Under the pieces are notes generated by a model. That model ran no database searches. It had not been told where the DNA came from and saw nothing but the letters and a program-made list of their open reading frames with translations. Of a DNA stretch of 64,000 bases, positions 2,860 through 15,225 are shown piece by piece. Made by a program: the position numbers and the translations under genes. How positions within the stretch are numbered: the first letter of the stretch is position 1; the number at the start of each line of letters is the position of its first letter. The stretch lies in the IMG/VR virus record IMGVR_UViG_3300044568_003163, positions 202,879-266,878 of that record. One strand, given 5' to 3'. Source of the DNA: a virus.

Positions 2860-5800
2860 TTAGAACATAGATACTTTAGTCTTAACTGTAACTTGAGATA
2901 AAGCAGCTACCATAGCAGTTTCTATATCTCTTGCGGATATAGAAGCTCCTGGTTTAGAAGATGCATGAACTATTGGTTTTTCTTTCATAGCTTTTCCTGC
3001 AGGAGTAGCAGCAGTAGGAGTAGAAGCAGTTTCTGTACCACCAGTTGCACCAGCACTTGAACCTGAATCTTCATTAAGTTTCTTAAGTCCATTTAATAAA
3101 TCTTCAAAAGCCTTTTCAATAGATTCTGCAATTTTTTCACCAATAACTTCAGGCGATTTAGACATAATAGCTAATGATTTCATCATTGAGTCGGTTGTTG
3201 TAAGTTTTTCTAAGTCCATGCCATTAACATGACCTTTGAATAACTGCATAGATTTTTGAATTTTGTCGAAATTCACTGCTACTTTGTCTAATGAATTTTT
3301 AGGAGAAGCCATCGTAACAATGTTAGATGTAAACTTGTCCATATATTCTAATTTCTTAGGTAAACCTTTATTTAATGCAGGATCGAATACTTTAAATATC
3401 GAACTTGTGAAATTTTGGAAATTTAATGTGGCTTTATCGGTAGATTCTAATTTAGAAAATGTATTAATTCCAGTCGACAAAGATGACATTATTTTAATCA
3501 TACTAGGTAAATTATTAAGAGCTCCATTAATAACGTCTTGATTTTTATTATAGAAATCTCCTACATTATAAACTTCAGTACCAAATAAAGAAAATCCCTT
3601 TAAATTATTATTAGCCTTTTCGAATATTGCTAAATCGGAAAATTTAACAATAGACTTAGACATATCTAATAATATCTTAATCATATTAGGTAGAGTACTA
3701 AGAGCTCCGTTGATAATACCTTTGTGAGTTTCGAAATATCCTCCTATTTTATAGATTCCTGTACCGAACGTAACTAATTTAGGTATAGTTTCAATTGCTT
3801 TATCGATACTATCTAATTTAGAAAATGTTGTAACTGATTCTGCTAATGAAGACATAGATTTTACCATTTTAGGTATAGAACTTATACCACCATCAATGGT
3901 TTCAGCATGTTGCTTATAAAAAACTCCGACATTATAGATTCCTTTACCTATAATCATCATTACTGAATTGATAGTTGTTCCTGCCTTTTTAAGCATAGCA
4001 TCTGTTATAGCTACTGGAGTTCCTGGTACTAATTTAGTATTTGTGCCTGTACCTACTGCAGTCATTGGAGTAATTGTACCAGTAGCAATTTTTATTACAG
4101 AATCAGTAACTTTAGCAACTACATCTCCAACTCCAGAGATAGCCTTTATACCTTTTGCGATATATCCATCTCCCCAGAAAGAAGAAGAATCATCCTCTTT
4201 TTTACCTATATCATAAAATCCAGTAGCTATAACTTTAAGGATATCCATTATTGTAGTAGCAGCATTAGTTAAATCTTTATCTGAAAGTATTTTTGGTTTT
4301 CCTGGTACTAGTTTAGCTTTAGAGGTTCCACCATCAATTAAATCAAAAGTGGGAATTTCTCGTTTAGCCATCATTAGAACTGAATCTACTATGTTTTTAA
4401 GATTTTCTCCTACTCCGGCTAAAGCTTTAACACCTCTAGCAATAAAACCACCAGCGAAAACTCCTTCAGAAGCTGCTTCATCTTTACCAATATCACTAAA
4501 CGCTTTAGCTACAACTCCGATAACAGTAGCTATACTTTTACCAGCAGATTCAATTTCCTTTTCACCTATTTTGGTTACACCTTTAGGTACTAATTTAGCT
4601 TTCGAAGTACCAGCATTAACAACCTCAAATTCAACAAATTGCATAGTAGCAAATTGCTTTACACCTGCTGCAAGAGAAACAATAGTATCTCCTGAATTTT
4701 TAAGAGATGCAACACCAGCAGAAACAAAACCTCCGCCGAATACCATATCATATAAAGGATTTCCTGATGGTTGTCCTTTATCGAGTCTTCCTACTAATGC
4801 AAATGGTTCAGCTATTGCAGTAATAACTTTTGCCATTCCGTTAGCCGCATTAGTAAAATCAGATTCACCTAATTTTCTTCTTGATTTTATAACTAACTTA
4901 GCTTTTGAAGTTCCTGCTCCAATAACTTCATATTCATTTACTTCTAAATTTGCCCATGCTTTAACTCCTTCGGCTAATGACGATAGCACATTACCTGCCA
5001 TACTAAGTGAAAGTATACCAGTCATCAAATCAATTGGATCTATATTAATTCCTAATTTTTTCTGTCTTTCTTTATCTGTAACTATTGTAAATGCTTTTGC
5101 AATAGAACCTATAGTTGATTCCAAAGCAACTCCATCTTCTGGAGTAAAACCAGAAGTTTTAAATATAGTTAGTCCTTTAGATATTGCAATTAATGCAATA
5201 CCTGCACCTACCATTGCTGGAACGGTTATGGTTAATAAGGCTGCTCTAGCTGCTGCTTGGCCAGCAAATTTAAGTCCTTCGAGAACTCCTCCAGGGAATC
5301 TACCTCCTAAGAATCCGTTAATTATTGAACTTAATCCATATTCTAAATTATCTCCATCTTCTTTATTAAATCCAGCACTTTTAAATATCGCTAATGCACC
5401 AGTTATAGGTAATAAAGCTACCGATGCAGCTGTCATTGCAAGTGAACCTAATAGTATAAGAGGAGAACCTAAACCAGCAAGTGCCATAGAACCTGCCAAA
5501 CTTTTAACTGATGCACCTAATGCATCTGCATCAGGAATTGTCATTCCGGCAGTTTTAAATACGGCAAGAGCACCGGTTATAGGTAATAGGGCTACTGAAG
5601 CTACTAACATCGCAGCTGAACCTAAAAGAATAAGTGGAGAACCTAAACCAGCAAGTGCCATTGAACCAGCTAAACTTGAAATAGATAAACCTAATGCTAT
5701 CGCATCATCTTTTGTTACTCCTATAGTTTTAAATACTGCAAGTGCTCCAGATATAACTAATAGAGAAACTCCAGCTAAAATCATCGAGGCTGAACCTAAT

Positions 5801-8688
5801 GCAATAAATATAGCACCAGCACCAGCAGCAGCCATTGCAAGTCCTAAACCTACAACAATTGCACCTAATATTAAAGCATCTTCAGTAGTAACACCTGCTT
5901 TTTTAAATACTAAAACTCCTGCAGCAATAACAACTAATGCAATTCCAGCAAGAATCATTACTCCAGCACCAAGACCAATTTCTACGAAATTATCTCCGGC
6001 TATTTTCATTGCTAGTCCTAGACCTGCAACAATAGCACCTAATAAAATGGCATCGCCAACTCCTACACCGGATTCTTTAAATTTAGTAAGAGCGTATGCT
6101 AATATTAATATTGCAATAGAAGCAAATCCTAATACCATAGAACCTAATCCTATTTCTTTCCAATATTGACCGAAAAGATACATCGCCATTCCAGTTACGG
6201 CTAAAATTCCTCCTAGTAATAAAATATCTGTTACCTGTAAGTTTATTGATTGAAACATCGCTAAACTATATGTAAAGAATAAAATAGAAAGAGCCATAAA
6301 AGATAAAGCCAATGTTCCCATTGCAATAGTTTTCCAATTCTTACCTATTTCATATGCAATAAATGCAAGTAATCCTATTGCCAATCCAGTAAATAAAACT
6401 GCCATAGGTGTGACCGAAGCTGCAAATAACATTACAACTGATCCTATAATTAATGCACCGAGTGCAAATAAAGTTAATCCAATTACTGCTTTTGCAATAT
6501 TTCCTAAGCTTTTATTTAACATTTCTCCTACTTGTTTAGCAATCCAAGCAATAAGTCCAATCATTATACCAAAAGCTATTACTTGTAAAACTCCTGCTGC
6601 TCCTACTGATTGTGCAAAATGAATAACTAATTGAGTTATCAATACAAGTCCTAACATAAATAAGGACATAGCTATTAGAGTAGATCCTTTCATATTAGCG
6701 CCACCCATAGCTTCAATAACCATTGTAGTAGTTTTTGCTAATATATAAGTCATCAAACCAAATAATAATATAGATTTAAGAGACTGAGGTGGATTTTGCA
6801 TTGCCTTTGAAATAACAACTAAAGATACTGCTTGTATTAAACCTGTCACTGCCGCAGATAAAAGATCCATATTAGTTAAATCAGTCTTAGACTCACCTAC
6901 CTTTTTAGCTAACATAAGGGTTATTTGAGATAGGATAAAAATAGCTCCAGTAAATAAAACAATATTTAATGCGACTGTCGTCAAATCGTTTTGAGTATTA
7001 AATGCCATAATTGTTGCTGCAGCAGTAACTAACACTCCAAGTATAGTAGCTATAACCATTACGGTTTGAACATCACCTTCAGTAACACCAGCATCTTTTA
7101 TTCCTTGATTAACTGCAGTAATTCGTTTAACCATAAATCCAAGAACCATAGCACCAACTAATACAAATGGAGCTAATAATCCGGCAATCACACACATAGT
7201 TAATAAAGTACCAATAGAAAAACTTAATGCAACTACAAATACTGCAGCAGCTAAAATATTTTCTGAATCTTTAACTACTTCCGAAATACCTCCTATTAAA
7301 GTTTTAATTGCAATATTAGTGATTTTCACACCTAATATAATAAAAGGATTCCAAATAGCAGCTCTCCTTAAAGCACTTATAAGAATATCGACACCATATG
7401 CTAATAATGTAAATGAAAGTACACTCTTAATCGCAGTTTCATTATCAATTCCTTTAGAAGTAAGTAACATTGCTCTAACTGCTCCAGATAGATCTTCAGC
7501 TCTTCTAGTTAACACATTAGGTTTACTAAATAGGCCAGAAAGAAATCCAGGAGTTAAGGCTTTTATTAATTTGCCTATATTAGAAGCCGATAATACATTA
7601 ATAGCAAAAACAGATTTTATAATAGTTTCTGGTATTAATCTTGAACCTGTCTTAAGTAAAATATTTACAGCCTTAGATAAATCTTCGGCTCTTCCAACCA
7701 TAGATCCACCACCAAAAAGTTTAGATAAAAACGATTCAGAAAGAACTTTTATCAATTTACCAATATTAGAAGCCGATAACATTGCATATGCAGTTATAGA
7801 TACTGCAGCAGTTTTAAGATTGATTCGATTTCCTGCTTTTAATAAGATATTTGTTGCATCTGAAATATTTTGAGCTAATCTAGACCAAAAACGACTTAAA
7901 ATAAAATTCTTTATCGTCATATTCTTATTAAAGAATTCAACAAATTCACCTAGTTTCGAAGCTACTATTAAATTATATGCAGCAATAGAAACTGCCGCTT
8001 GAGTTAAATCTATTCCTTTACCGGCATTAAGTAATATTCGAGTCGTATTTGATATAACAATTGCAAAATCCTCATACATTGAACCGAAAATCATATTCTT
8101 AATAGTCAATGTAGAACCTAGAAAATCAACAAATTCTTTTAATTTAGACGAACTAATTAATCCATATATTAGTAATGAATTTGCCGCAGTTCCCATATCC
8201 ACTTCTTCAGACACAGAAAGTAATTTAATCATTGCTTGATTAAGATAACCTGCACCTTCTACTAGGAAATCTCCAAACAAATAAGAAACTGCTAATACTT
8301 TAACTAATTTCATTAATGCTTCGGGAATTGAACCTATGGCAGCAGCTAATCCACCATCATTGGCTGCACCTCCACCACCGACTGAGTCGCTTTTAGATAG
8401 TTTAGCAACTTTAATTTCAATAGATGATAATAAAGAGTTTTGTATAACCGAATGTTGTTCTATTCGATTCATAAGTTCTGCACTTATTCCAAATACGGAT
8501 TTAAGGTCAGATAAAAGAGTTGTATGCTTCTTTAGCTCGAGAGAAACGTCATTTTTTACAACGGTTTCTATCGAGCCAAGAAGTATTAAGGAATTGTCTT
8601 CTGCTAGTTTAGTAGCACTTACCATTGCATCCATCTTCTTAAGAATGGATAACATTGCTTGATTTACACCTTCTGCCCTAACAGCCAT
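2860..8688 (-). CDS. Tape measure protein, repeat-built, 1942 aa
   Basis: The largest gene in the window. It sits right after the baseplate/chaperone pair, as tape measures usually do. The N-terminus (1-110) is coiled-coil-like, followed by a Gly-rich hinge. The rest is modular: about 75-residue repeats (roughly 160-420), hydrophobic helices (430-800), five 58-residue repeats at 816-1105, about 95-residue repeats each containing GTSKAKLV (roughly 1250-1560), three 61-residue repeats at 1590-1772, and a low-complexity Ser/Thr/Ala tail ending in a conserved-looking segment. T4 gp29 has 590 residues. At the usual 0.15 nm per residue this predicts a tail near 290 nm. The hydrophobic stretches suggest membrane penetration on ejection. 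Function is inferred from size, repeats and position. Confidence 0.85.
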   Translation of the reverse strand: MAVRAEGVNQAMLSILKKMDAMVSATKLAEDNSLILLGSIETVVKNDVSLELKKHTTLLSDLKSVFGISAELMNRIEQHSVIQNSLLSSIEIKVAKLSKSDSVGGGGAANDGGLAAAIGSIPEALMKLVKVLAVSYLFGDFLVEGAGYLNQAMIKLLSVSEEVDMGTAANSLLIYGLISSSKLKEFVDFLGSTLTIKNMIFGSMYEDFAIVISNTTRILLNAGKGIDLTQAAVSIAAYNLIVASKLGEFVEFFNKNMTIKNFILSRFWSRLAQNISDATNILLKAGNRINLKTAAVSITAYAMLSASNIGKLIKVLSESFLSKLFGGGSMVGRAEDLSKAVNILLKTGSRLIPETIIKSVFAINVLSASNIGKLIKALTPGFLSGLFSKPNVLTRRAEDLSGAVRAMLLTSKGIDNETAIKSVLSFTLLAYGVDILISALRRAAIWNPFIILGVKITNIAIKTLIGGISEVVKDSENILAAAVFVVALSFSIGTLLTMCVIAGLLAPFVLVGAMVLGFMVKRITAVNQGIKDAGVTEGDVQTVMVIATILGVLVTAAATIMAFNTQNDLTTVALNIVLFTGAIFILSQITLMLAKKVGESKTDLTNMDLLSAAVTGLIQAVSLVVISKAMQNPPQSLKSILLFGLMTYILAKTTTMVIEAMGGANMKGSTLIAMSLFMLGLVLITQLVIHFAQSVGAAGVLQVIAFGIMIGLIAWIAKQVGEMLNKSLGNIAKAVIGLTLFALGALIIGSVVMLFAASVTPMAVLFTGLAIGLLAFIAYEIGKNWKTIAMGTLALSFMALSILFFTYSLAMFQSINLQVTDILLLGGILAVTGMAMYLFGQYWKEIGLGSMVLGFASIAILILAYALTKFKESGVGVGDAILLGAIVAGLGLAMKIAGDNFVEIGLGAGVMILAGIALVVIAAGVLVFKKAGVTTEDALILGAIVVGLGLAMAAAGAGAIFIALGSASMILAGVSLLVISGALAVFKTIGVTKDDAIALGLSISSLAGSMALAGLGSPLILLGSAAMLVASVALLPITGALAVFKTAGMTIPDADALGASVKSLAGSMALAGLGSPLILLGSLAMTAASVALLPITGALAIFKSAGFNKEDGDNLEYGLSSIINGFLGGRFPGGVLEGLKFAGQAAARAALLTITVPAMVGAGIALIAISKGLTIFKTSGFTPEDGVALESTIGSIAKAFTIVTDKERQKKLGINIDPIDLMTGILSLSMAGNVLSSLAEGVKAWANLEVNEYEVIGAGTSKAKLVIKSRRKLGESDFTNAANGMAKVITAIAEPFALVGRLDKGQPSGNPLYDMVFGGGFVSAGVASLKNSGDTIVSLAAGVKQFATMQFVEFEVVNAGTSKAKLVPKGVTKIGEKEIESAGKSIATVIGVVAKAFSDIGKDEAASEGVFAGGFIARGVKALAGVGENLKNIVDSVLMMAKREIPTFDLIDGGTSKAKLVPGKPKILSDKDLTNAATTIMDILKVIATGFYDIGKKEDDSSSFWGDGYIAKGIKAISGVGDVVAKVTDSVIKIATGTITPMTAVGTGTNTKLVPGTPVAITDAMLKKAGTTINSVMMIIGKGIYNVGVFYKQHAETIDGGISSIPKMVKSMSSLAESVTTFSKLDSIDKAIETIPKLVTFGTGIYKIGGYFETHKGIINGALSTLPNMIKILLDMSKSIVKFSDLAIFEKANNNLKGFSLFGTEVYNVGDFYNKNQDVINGALNNLPSMIKIMSSLSTGINTFSKLESTDKATLNFQNFTSSIFKVFDPALNKGLPKKLEYMDKFTSNIVTMASPKNSLDKVAVNFDKIQKSMQLFKGHVNGMDLEKLTTTDSMMKSLAIMSKSPEVIGEKIAESIEKAFEDLLNGLKKLNEDSGSSAGATGGTETASTPTAATPAGKAMKEKPIVHASSKPGASISARDIETAMVAALSQVTVKTKVSMF
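3373..3921 (-). repeat. Three 61-codon repeats in tape measure
   Basis: Tape-measure residues 1590-1650, 1651-1711 and 1712-1772 align without gaps (183-bp period). Each has an aromatic start (FY or YF), then an I(D/N)G.L..(I/L)P.M(I/V)K core and an FSKL/FSDL segment. Confidence 0.7.
5374..6243 (-). repeat. Five 58-codon tandem repeats in tape measure
   Basis: Residues 816-1105 of the tape measure form five gap-free units of exactly 58 residues (174 bp). Each has the pattern (D)(A/I)..LG....GLGMA.., then a hydrophobic core ending in a (V/I)FK(K/T/S) motif. The two units at the C-terminal end are nearly identical (LAGSMALAGLGSPLILLGS in both), indicating recent duplication. Confidence 0.8.
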
Positions 8689-8696
8689 TTACGTTT

Positions 8697-8987
8697 TTAT
8701 AATTTTAGAGAAGAGGGGATTCCAGGGAATGCTGCCGGAGAATATGATGGCATTTTTGGCATTTTAACTCCAGAATTTTTCATCATCTGATTAGGATTCA
8801 TATCTGCGTGGGACTTAGTTTGTCCTTCTTCAGCTTCCTGTTTCTCTTTTAGTATATATATCAAGTTTTGGACGATGTACTCAAACTCATAAAAGGGCAG
8901 CCTTTCCACTTCAGAAGGCTGCAACCTAAGATGATATAGAAGATACGTTTTAGTCTTAAAGAAGTTCTCCAGAGATATCTGAAACAA
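8697..8987 (-). CDS. Small tail-assembly chaperone-like protein (TTG start or +1 frameshift)
   Basis: A 96-residue reading frame between the gp26-like gene and the tape measure. The first half is helical (FYEFEYIVQNLIYILKEK); the second half is Met/Pro/Ser-rich. No ATG precedes residue 62. It must start at the TTG at 8987, 32 bases inside the upstream gene, or be read as a +1 frameshift product. The upstream gene ends GGA GAA CTT CTT TAA, and a +1 slip on CTT-T gives TTT AAG, exactly this frame. Position and shape fit a tail chaperone or gp51-like assembly factor; no firm homologue is recognised. Confidence 0.6.
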   Translation of the reverse strand: MFQISLENFFKTKTYLLYHLRLQPSEVERLPFYEFEYIVQNLIYILKEKQEAEEGQTKSHADMNPNQMMKNSGVKMPKMPSYSPAAFPGIPSSLKL

Positions 8988-9927
8988 CGAAAAGACCTTT
9001 GATGCCTCCGGGAAAGCTGATCGGGGTTGTCACCTCCGAATGACACTTTTCACAGATTGTATTAAATTTTTCTTTAACTCCAATTCTACACATATCAGTT
9101 AATGAATATAGAGTTTGGTATTTTGTAGTTGACCATGACATAGCTTCTATTTCTAAATTGTTAATAGCAGCTTCATTAAATCCTCGCCAGTCTTGAGACA
9201 TATATGGCAAGATTTTAATAAATGATTGGTCAATCTTTTTACCTTCTTGCTGACGTTTTTGAATATATTTAGTTACTTCCATCATAACTCCAATTGATGG
9301 CGGTACTAATTTTATAGTTCCACTAGATTTTGTAGTTACATGAAACATTCTTGAATCATAATCGTAGTACTTCATTAGTTTATCATCTATCTCGGTAGCT
9401 TCGAAAACATCATTTTTGATTTTAATTTCGTTTTCATGATTACATTCTCCGCATGGAGCTTTAATAATTAATTGATTTTCTCCATTAGGGAAAGTTAATT
9501 CTCTGATAGCTAATATCAGGTGGATTCTATCTTCTTCTCGTAAATCCTTAAACGAAGATTGTCTACCTGGTTGTCTAGTCATCATACAAGATTTTAAAAT
9601 CTCATTTAATGCTTCATCAATAGAAAATGGATCCTGTTCGTTGATAGTAGAGAAATGTCTAATTTCTTTTACTTCTGCGGCACGAATAAAAAATCTCGTA
9701 TTTTCTGGATAGAATAAACCTTTTGATGGAAAGTTTTCTGCCCATATTTCATGATAACCTGGTAATAATGCCGGTTCATCACTTCTGTCATTTTCGTAAC
9801 CTGCTGCTTTACCAAGCGATGTAGGTTTAACGTCTATTTTTATTGTTTCTGGTTTTTGAGTTTCCTCAGCTTGAAATTCTCTTTGTTGTAAATCTCTTTC
9901 AGCAGCTTCTTCGAAGTTTGTGTCCAT
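8956..9927 (-). CDS. gp26: T4 gp26-like baseplate hub / tail assembly protein
   Basis: A 323-residue protein with the layout of the T4 base plate protein family (gp26-like): a variable acidic N-terminus (1-50), a PSKGLFYP turn near 68-75, an FIRAAEVKEI strand, and a helical region with Asp-Glu pairs. Two CxxC pairs (CGEC near 158-161 and CEKC near 296-299) could bind one zinc. It is followed by a small gene and the tape measure, as in many contractile-tail phages where this product acts in tail assembly. The final codons CTT CTT TAA look like a +1 frameshift site. Family assignment is by pattern only. Confidence 0.6.
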   Translation of the reverse strand: MDTNFEEAAERDLQQREFQAEETQKPETIKIDVKPTSLGKAAGYENDRSDEPALLPGYHEIWAENFPSKGLFYPENTRFFIRAAEVKEIRHFSTINEQDPFSIDEALNEILKSCMMTRQPGRQSSFKDLREEDRIHLILAIRELTFPNGENQLIIKAPCGECNHENEIKIKNDVFEATEIDDKLMKYYDYDSRMFHVTTKSSGTIKLVPPSIGVMMEVTKYIQKRQQEGKKIDQSFIKILPYMSQDWRGFNEAAINNLEIEAMSWSTTKYQTLYSLTDMCRIGVKEKFNTICEKCHSEVTTPISFPGGIKGLFVVSDISGELL

Positions 9928-14275: not shown

Positions 14276-14734
14276 TTATTTTGCAAATGTTAGAGTATAA
14301 TATTTTTTGCCGTTTACGTTAGTTGTTATAGACACTCCTACGTCAGTAAAATCTCCTCGTAATATTTGTTGAGTTTCAATATTAGTATTAATTGCATTTA
14401 ATGCGCTTTGATTTGTGCTATAATTATAGCAAACTATAGCACTAACTCGTTGATAGCCTAGTCTTTTTAGATTTTCTACTCTATCGTGAAAGTGATAATG
14501 TTTAATGTCATTATAAGAAATCATATAGTTATTACTCTGTTCGCAAAGAGCACTTATATGTTGAACTTCATTTAGTGAAGTTACTAAGTTAGATGTTCGA
14601 TATTGATTTATGAGTTGTATCATCTCTAACTCTTGAATATTATATTCGTAAGGTAGTAAAATAATAGGTGGCTCGTCGTTAGTTGAACAACTAAAAGACA
14701 ATAAAAGAGTTAGTATTAATATAATTTTCTTCAT
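14276..14734 (-). CDS. Degenerate CAP-domain lipoprotein
   Basis: I choose the ATG at 14734 because MKKIILILTLLLSFSC is a complete lipoprotein signal with lipobox LSFSC (Cys16); an in-frame ATG 15 bases upstream is less likely. After Cys16 comes STNDE, acidic like Bacteroidota lipoprotein surface-export signals. The remainder is clearly a diverged copy of the gene upstream (LINQYR, HISALCEQ..YM, H.RV.NL, GDFTDVGVSIT). It has lost the GEN glutamate (now VCYN) and the SPGH segment. It may be a tandem duplicate that kept only a structural role. A TTGCATATAATAATAATG element overlaps the start. Confidence 0.8.
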   Translation of the reverse strand: MKKIILILTLLLSFSCSTNDEPPIILLPYEYNIQELEMIQLINQYRTSNLVTSLNEVQHISALCEQSNNYMISYNDIKHYHFHDRVENLKRLGYQRVSAIVCYNYSTNQSALNAINTNIETQQILRGDFTDVGVSITTNVNGKKYYTLTFAK

Positions 14735-14763
14735 TATTATTATATGCAATAGAGATAAAAAGG

Positions 14764-15225
14764 TTATCTACTTATTAGAATAAGAGTTATGTAATTTCTT
14801 TGATTGGAGCTTCGAGTTATAGATAATCCAAAGTCAGTGTAATCGCCTTCAATATTTCTTTTATGTCCAGGACTATTTAACCATGCATTTAATGTCGATG
14901 AAGGATTTTGATAATTATAAGCTATATTTTCACCGACTCTTACTGCACCTAAAGTATTTTGTAAATTATTTACTCGTTGTTGAAAATAGTCATGATTTAC
15001 AACATTATTTTCTATCATATAGATATTGTGCTCATAACATACATACGATATATGTTGATTAGGTTGAAGCTCATTAAGACCTATGTTATTTCGATAGGCA
15101 TTTATTACATCAAATAATTCTATTTCCCTTTCAGAATATTGATAACTATATACTTGTGGTATAATCGATTCATCATTTTTAGTACACGATAAAATCAAAA
15201 TCATTAAAATTAAAAATTTTCTCAT
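14764..15225 (-). CDS. CAP-domain (SCP/YkwD-like) lipoprotein
   Basis: Signal peptide with lipobox LILSC (Cys14) followed by TKNDE. The mature part is a compact CAP domain: INAYRNNIGL near 41-50, NHDYFQQRV near 78-86, VGENIAY near 97-103, and WLNSPGHKRNIEGDYTDFG near 117-135. The two His and the Glu of the usual CAP cavity are present. Such a protein would be anchored in the envelope of the infected cell, perhaps at its surface. Superinfection exclusion or envelope remodelling is an inference. An AATAAATATTCTAAAT late-like element lies just upstream of the start. Confidence 0.85.
   Translation of the reverse strand: MRKFLILMILILSCTKNDESIIPQVYSYQYSEREIELFDVINAYRNNIGLNELQPNQHISYVCYEHNIYMIENNVVNHDYFQQRVNNLQNTLGAVRVGENIAYNYQNPSSTLNAWLNSPGHKRNIEGDYTDFGLSITRSSNQRNYITLILISR

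What the first reader, a model, noticed from the sequence alone, without database searches (positions are those of the whole stretch)
8900..8990. Candidate +1 frameshift CTT-TAA joining the gp26-like gene to the pre-tape-measure gene
The upstream gene ends GGA GAA CTT CTT TAA G. A +1 slip of the CTT tRNA onto TTT gives TTT AAG, exactly the frame of the next gene, which lacks any early ATG. The E. coli RF2 site is CTT TGA with an upstream SD-like sequence; here GGAG lies just upstream, though this genome shows no SD at normal starts. Tail chaperones just before tape measures often use frameshifts.
Basis: partly seen in the sequence, partly recalled or inferred. Interest (0 to 1): 0.7.

Follow-up and report, generated by a model that had tools for sequence, protein, structure and literature searches.

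The report
Conserved +1 frameshift in phage tail gene

Summary
The gp26-like gene (8956-9927, minus) and the small pre-tape-measure ORF are joined by a conserved +1 frame relation, but CTT-TAA is not the shift site. In 102 dereplicated relatives the +1 frame is open across the 3' end of the upstream gene every time, and the conserved +1 peptide (FSLFQISLENFF) is encoded upstream of the stop. CTT-TAA occurs in only 39 of 102. Synonymous-site analysis finds one invariant dicodon, TTT CCC (window 9015-9010): TTT 98/98 and CCC 94/96, although CCC is about 1% of Pro codons. It is the only in-frame TTTCCC among 18,580 window codons. A synonymously fixed Shine-Dalgarno-like GGAGGT sits exactly 16 nt upstream in 78 of 100 sites. 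Best reading: programmed +1 frameshifting at UUU CCC N makes a short G-type protein and a long GT-type fusion, as tail assembly chaperones do. T4 gp26 and gp51 belong to the same family, gp51 carrying a C-terminal extension; they may be the duplicated-gene equivalent (weaker evidence). No experiment exists. The 16-nt spacing fits no precedent, and three lineages lack the canonical dicodon.

The parts
8956..9927 (-). 0-frame gene, G-type product, 323 aa, PF12322 (T4 gp26/gp51) family
   Evidence: Pfam PF12322 E 5.9e-5, just under the curated cut-off; E 7.8e-6, above the cut-off, as the fusion P0001; relatives L108, L010 and L189 pass the cut-off; AlphaFold model mean pLDDT 80.6 matches T4-like 'baseplate hub' proteins in BFVD.
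9030..9037 (-). Shine-Dalgarno-like GGAGGTGA, 16 nt between GGAGGT and TTT
   Evidence: GGAGGT at exactly 16 nt in 78 of 100 sites; GGAGG otherwise 15 times in 81,315 nt of these genes; GAG codon 96/98, obs/exp 0.13.
9009..9015 (-). +1 slip site TTT CCC G (TTT 9015-9013, CCC 9012-9010, G 9009)
   Evidence: TTT 98/98, CCC 94/96; CCC 1.6% of Pro codons in the gene family and 7/635 in the window; only in-frame TTTCCC in 18,580 codons.
8956..9009 (-). dual-coding overlap (end of G in frame 0, start of T part in frame +1)
   Evidence: +1 open in 102/102, frame +2 in 12/102; third-position entropy falls from 1.39 to 0.53 while first position stays 0.95.
8697..9014 (-). +1-frame T-type domain, 105 aa from the slip
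   Evidence: homologues found in the same place and frame in relatives; helical model, confident only over residues 12-60.
8697..9927 (-). predicted GT-type fusion product, 409 aa (P0001)
   Evidence: Translated with one four-base step CCCG=P.
8956..8961 (-).
   Evidence: Present in 39 of 102 relatives only; explained by the overlapping +1 reading NFFK.
2860..8688 (-). 1942-aa tape-measure candidate directly downstream
   Evidence: Starts 8 nt after the T ORF; a long ORF follows directly in the close and marine groups. Named tape measure from length and place; no family hit.

Best explanation
A programmed +1 ribosomal frameshift. Ribosomes reading the gp26-like gene pause at the very rare Pro codon CCC. 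The peptidyl-tRNA slips one base forward (tRNA-Phe UUU to UUC with CCC in the A site, or tRNA-Pro CCC to CCG; both give the same protein ...SFP-EASKVFSLFQ...). Most ribosomes terminate at TAA 8956 and give the 323-aa G-type protein; a minority read on in +1 and give the 409-aa GT-type fusion with a helical C-terminal domain. A fixed SD-like element 16 nt upstream probably modulates the event. The two products probably act as tail assembly chaperones on the adjacent tape-measure protein. Shown by comparison: the frame relation, dual coding, the invariant dicodon and the SD-like element. Inferred: that slippage occurs, its efficiency, which tRNA slips, the role of the SD-like element, and the chaperone function.
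For: +1 frame open in 102/102 dereplicated relatives, frame +2 in 12/102; joint expectation over 14 lineages (<55% identity) 4e-10 with synonymous codons shuffled. Conserved +1 peptide upstream of the stop with no ATG/GTG/TTG between slip and stop in 33 of 102. In 17 of 102 a +1 stop lies directly 5' of the TTT codon (+1 opens at -59), so the +1 frame can only be entered at or after TTT. TTT 98/98 and CCC 94/96, the flanking codons on both sides varying normally. CCC is 1-2% of Pro codons. Where CCC is replaced (CAA, CCA, CGA) TTT C is usually kept. SD-like GGAGGT at fixed spacing. L024/L025 have CCA, no SD, no overlap, and the downstream ORF has its own ATG. Phage tRNA set found: two Pro(UGG), no Pro(GGG). 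Precedents: CCC-based +1 shifts in SPP1 (PMC6316719) and Listeria phages (PMC5009743).
Against: No protein or reporter data. MA9V-1/2 (L007/8), PTm1 (L009) and LR756504 (L017) lack the TTT CCC pair at the aligned place though their +1 overlap is kept; L017 keeps CCC. SD spacing of 16 nt is unlike the short spacing of RF2-type +1 sites. No downstream RNA structure found (mean z -0.2 to -0.5). Efficiency unknown. L024 shows that the T domain can exist as a separate ORF.
Confidence: 0.87

Rival explanations
1. RF2-like +1 shift at CTT TAA (8961-8956).
For: Sequence present; CTT-U slips in prfB; exact +1 frame.
Against: Only 39/102 have CTTTAA, 43 have GAATAA; conserved +1 coding starts upstream of it; third positions already constrained upstream.
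Confidence: 0.03
2. No frameshift: the small ORF is translated on its own from TTG 8987 or another start in the overlap, by coupling or re-initiation.
For: Some relatives have ATG or TTG in the overlap; annotators placed starts there in pT24 and MaF61; L024 has its own ATG.
Against: 33 of 102 have no ATG/GTG/TTG in the overlap before the stop; the TTG of the window is TTA in others; does not explain invariant TTT CCC, which lies upstream of any such start.
Confidence: 0.07
3. +1 slip at the later CTT TTC (about 8993-8988).
For: TTC is 96 of 101 Phe codons at this column and is followed directly by the constrained overlap.
Against: The Leu/Ile codon varies freely: CTT, CTC, CTA, CTG, TTA, TTG, ATT; TTC is explained by +1 Ser (TCN).
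Confidence: 0.03
4. Assembly or sequencing frameshift in one genome.
For: None found.
Against: Same +1 relation in isolate genomes (PAU, pT24, PTm1, MA9V, MaF61) and about 100 independent contigs.
Confidence: 0.01

Closest known systems
Phage lambda G/GT-type tail assembly chaperone frameshift (Xu, Hendrix, Duda)
   Same: Gene before the tape measure; short product and longer fusion with a small C-terminal domain; both ends conserved.
   Different: Shift is +1 not -1; site is UUU CCC N; G protein is of the T4 gp26/gp51 family with zinc-ribbon-like cysteines; SD-like element upstream.
+1 shifts at CCC in SPP1 gp17.1* (CCCUAA) and Listeria PSA/A118/A500 tsh (CCC UGA) and PSA cps (CCC UCC)
   Same: +1 direction at a rare Pro codon CCC in phages (PMC6316719, PMC5009743).
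   Different: Those are major tail or capsid proteins, mostly next to a stop; here CCC is 18 codons before the stop, paired with invariant TTT, with an SD-like element, in a chaperone-type gene.
prfB (RF2) +1 frameshift
   Same: +1 direction; SD-like sequence; kept in Bacteroidia despite an occluded anti-SD (PMC8710568).
   Different: No stop codon at the slip; spacing 16 nt instead of about 3; no autoregulation expected.
T4 gp26 and gp51 (hub assembly chaperones)
   Same: Same Pfam family; gp51 has a C-terminal extension, gp26 has none; fused profile aligns end to end with gp51, only its N-terminal part with gp26.
   Different: Two separate genes, no frameshift; homology of the extension alone is not significant.

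Membership tests
Programmed +1 ribosomal frameshifting | Downstream coding frame is +1 and conserved across relatives | tested here: met
   102/102 open, frame +2 12/102.
Programmed +1 ribosomal frameshifting | Conserved shift-prone sequence beyond protein constraint | tested here: met
   TTT 98/98, CCC 94/96, obs/exp 0.00 and 0.09 against mean 1.02.
Programmed +1 ribosomal frameshifting | Trans-frame protein is made | not testable with these tools
   Needs mass spectrometry or a reporter.
Tail assembly chaperone G/GT pair | Located just upstream of the tape-measure gene | tested here: inconclusive
   Window and most close/marine relatives have a long ORF directly downstream; L015, L006, L010, L011, L009 do not within the stretch read.
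Tail assembly chaperone G/GT pair | Frameshift near the 3' end giving G plus a C-terminal T domain | tested here: met
   (by comparison only).
Tail assembly chaperone G/GT pair | Absent from virions; binds tape measure and tail tube | not testable with these tools
   For T4 gp51 a review says it is required but not in the particle (PMC3004832).
PF12322 (T4 gp26/gp51) | Profile match above curated cut-off | tested here: met
   26.2 bits for the fusion against 24.5; G alone 23.3, just below; relatives L108 41.7 and L010 33.9 pass.
RF2 (prfB)-type shift | CUU stop with SD about 3 nt upstream, conserved | tested here: not met
   CTTTAA 39/102; SD-like element is 16 nt from a different codon.

The most novel reading that the evidence does not exclude
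A widespread +1 frameshift class specific to large Bacteroidota-type phages: UUU CCC N plus an SD-like element at 16 nt, acting on ribosomes whose anti-SD is largely hidden at initiation. It makes G/GT chaperones of the T4 gp26/gp51 family, so T4, the noted exception to G-T frameshifting, would be a case where gene duplication (26 and 51) replaced the frameshift.
Probability: 0.35. Interest if true: 0.8.

Novelty: new variant of a known kind. Interest (0 to 1): 0.66.

Why it matters
It would add a clear +1 example to tail-chaperone frameshifting, which is described as mostly -1 and as absent from T4 (PMC5009743). It gives a testable answer to how T4-type phages fill the G/GT role. It offers a natural probe of anti-SD use during elongation in Bacteroidota: the two Chryseobacterium phages, whose host clade has a changed anti-SD (UCUCA, PMC8710568), carry CGAGAC where the others have GGAGGT. 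It would also correct the annotation of many phage genomes in which the T part is missed or truncated.

Tried and rejected
CTT-TAA site: rejected by conservation. CTT-TTC site: rejected, codon varies. Independent start at TTG 8987: not conserved. -2 shift at TTTCCC: no re-pairing possible by inspection. Downstream RNA structure: none. The fused protein could not be modelled (that four-base step is not accepted by the structure tool); G and T parts were modelled apart instead. PDB fold search of G: no hit at E<=0.001. T model against BFVD: nothing at E<=0.001. Profile match of the T domain alone to the gp51 C-terminus: E 0.026 and 0.12 in two builds, with reversed and gp26 controls at 0.075-0.35, so not significant. 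Phage-encoded bS21: none found in the record. Delftia phage PhiW-14 region fetched at guessed coordinates, uninformative.

Full report
What was checked. The window lies in a 294-kb virus record. On the minus strand the gene 8956-9927 (323 aa) ends GGA GAA CTT CTT TAA G, and the next ORF is in the +1 frame with no ATG near the junction.

What the relatives show. Relatives came from annotated phages (LR756500-756504, LR745206, Lak phages, MA9V-1/2, PTm1, pT24, PAU, MaF61) and from IMG/VR. Of 176 usable loci, 102 remained after removing near-duplicates; the loss case L024/L025, the Lak phages (TAG recoded) and NCTB were kept out of this set and looked at apart. In all 102 the +1 frame is open over the last 57 nt of the gene; the +2 frame is open in 12. 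With synonymous codons shuffled, the joint expectation over 14 lineages sharing less than 55% identity is 4e-10. The +1 peptide is conserved ([TE]ESK-[VIL]FSLFQISLxNFF-K...), and its conserved start lies upstream of the 0-frame stop in all but a few. In 33 of 102 there is no ATG, GTG or TTG in the +1 frame before the stop.

Where the shift is. In 17 of 102 a +1 stop sits directly 5' of the TTT codon, so the +1 frame must be entered at or after it. In a per-codon synonymous analysis (297 columns, mean obs/exp 1.02, sd 0.33) the low values gather at the 3' end of the gene: GAG of the SD-like element (96/98, 0.13); then about five codons of ordinary variation; then TTT (98/98, 0.00) and CCC (94/96, 0.09); then a few codons of ordinary variation (GGN 1.27); then the dual-coding overlap. 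CCC is 1.6% of Pro codons in this gene family and 7 of 635 in the window, where this is the only in-frame TTTCCC in 18,580 codons. Among the 14 diverged lineages, eight of the nine with Pro at this place use CCC. In the overlap third positions become the least variable (0.53) and first positions the most (0.95), the reverse of the gene body (1.39 and 1.08), as expected for two overlapping frames. CTT-TAA is in only 39 of 102 and the CTT of CTT-TTC varies freely, so neither is the site.

Elements. GGAGGT lies exactly 16 nt before TTT in 78 of 100 sites; GGAGG occurs 15 times in 81,315 nt elsewhere in these genes. Window genes avoid SD-like 4-mers before their starts (2 of 54 against 6.75 at internal control places), as in Bacteroidota. 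Flavobacterium nevertheless keeps an SD-type prfB frameshift, uniformly absent in Weeksellaceae whose anti-SD is changed to UCUCA (PMC8710568). The two Chryseobacterium (Weeksellaceae) phages L007/L008 lack GGAGG and have CGAGAC there; UGAGA would pair with UCUCA. This is one lineage and only suggestive. No RNA structure was found downstream.

Mechanism. UUU CCC N allows tRNA-Phe to move from UUU to UUC, and tRNA-Pro from CCC to CCN. Both give the same protein, so sequence cannot tell them apart. L005, L144, L012, L130, L187 and the Lak phages keep TTT C without CCC, favouring tRNA-Phe with a slow A-site codon; L017 keeps CCC without TTT, favouring tRNA-Pro. The tRNA cluster read from this phage holds two Pro(UGG) and no Pro(GGG). 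The 16-nt spacing is longer than in prfB and its role is unexplained.

Function. The G protein is a PF12322 member, and its AlphaFold model (mean pLDDT 80.6) matches T4-like baseplate hub and gp51-like proteins among predicted viral structures (59 hits at E<=0.001). A long ORF, the tape-measure candidate, follows directly in the window and in most close and marine relatives, but not in several distant ones. T4 gp26 and gp51 are both PF12322; gp51 carries an extra C-terminal part matched by phrog_634. The fused profile aligns with gp51 over its whole length (E 1.8e-4; reversed control 0.37) and with gp26 only in the N-terminal part. The +1 domain alone against the gp51 extension is not significant. 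A review lists gp26 and gp51 as hub assembly chaperones and says gp51 is not in the particle (PMC3004832); another says G-T frameshifting is widespread except in T4 (PMC5009743). Phage NCTB has two tandem genes (BN7874_211 and 210) matching the family profile weakly, directly before its tape measure. I propose, at moderate confidence, that gp26/gp51 are a duplicated-gene version of the G/GT pair.

Limits. All evidence is comparative. Relatives are not independent, so lineage-level numbers are given. Three lineages lack the canonical dicodon: L007/8, L009 (which has an in-frame TTT CAA 75 nt before its stop) and L017. None of the annotated records read joins the two frames; the T part is annotated as a separate, mostly shortened ORF. 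No paper found in the held library describes this case, but subscription papers are not held.

Noticed in passing
L204:4549-4623 and 4429-4502 (G000:C1 about 67.7-67.9 kb): Two phage tRNA-Pro(UGG): one has G37, the other A37. From general knowledge m1G37 suppresses +1 slips of tRNA-Pro on CCC, so the A37 copy might promote the shift. LR745206 and LR756502 also have one of each; LR756501 and Lak-C1 show only the G37 form in the stretches read.
   Followed up: partly
L204:745-817 (G000:C1:64044-64116): A phage tRNA with an 8-nt anticodon loop (cgAGCGag), a possible four-base decoder; similar odd tRNAs in LR745206 (GTAG) and LR756501 (TTAC).
   Followed up: no
G000:C1:63593-73618: Cluster of about 35-38 tRNA genes in this phage.
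   Followed up: no
L024 and L025, 3' end of the gp26-like gene: Natural loss: TTT CCA, no SD-like element, no +1 overlap, and the downstream ORF has its own ATG 7 nt after the start of the stop codon.
   Followed up: partly
window, starts of 54 ORFs: SD-like 4-mers are rarer before starts (2/54) than at internal control places (6.75), as expected for a Bacteroidota-type host.
   Followed up: yes
L007, L009, L010 (GenBank OR050627, NC_049340, NC_019521): Annotated small genes after the gp26-like gene start late and miss the conserved N-terminal part of the T domain.
   Followed up: partly
window 14276-15225 (-): Two adjacent similar ORFs that look by eye like secreted lipoproteins with a CAP/SCP-type domain; not searched.
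   Followed up: no
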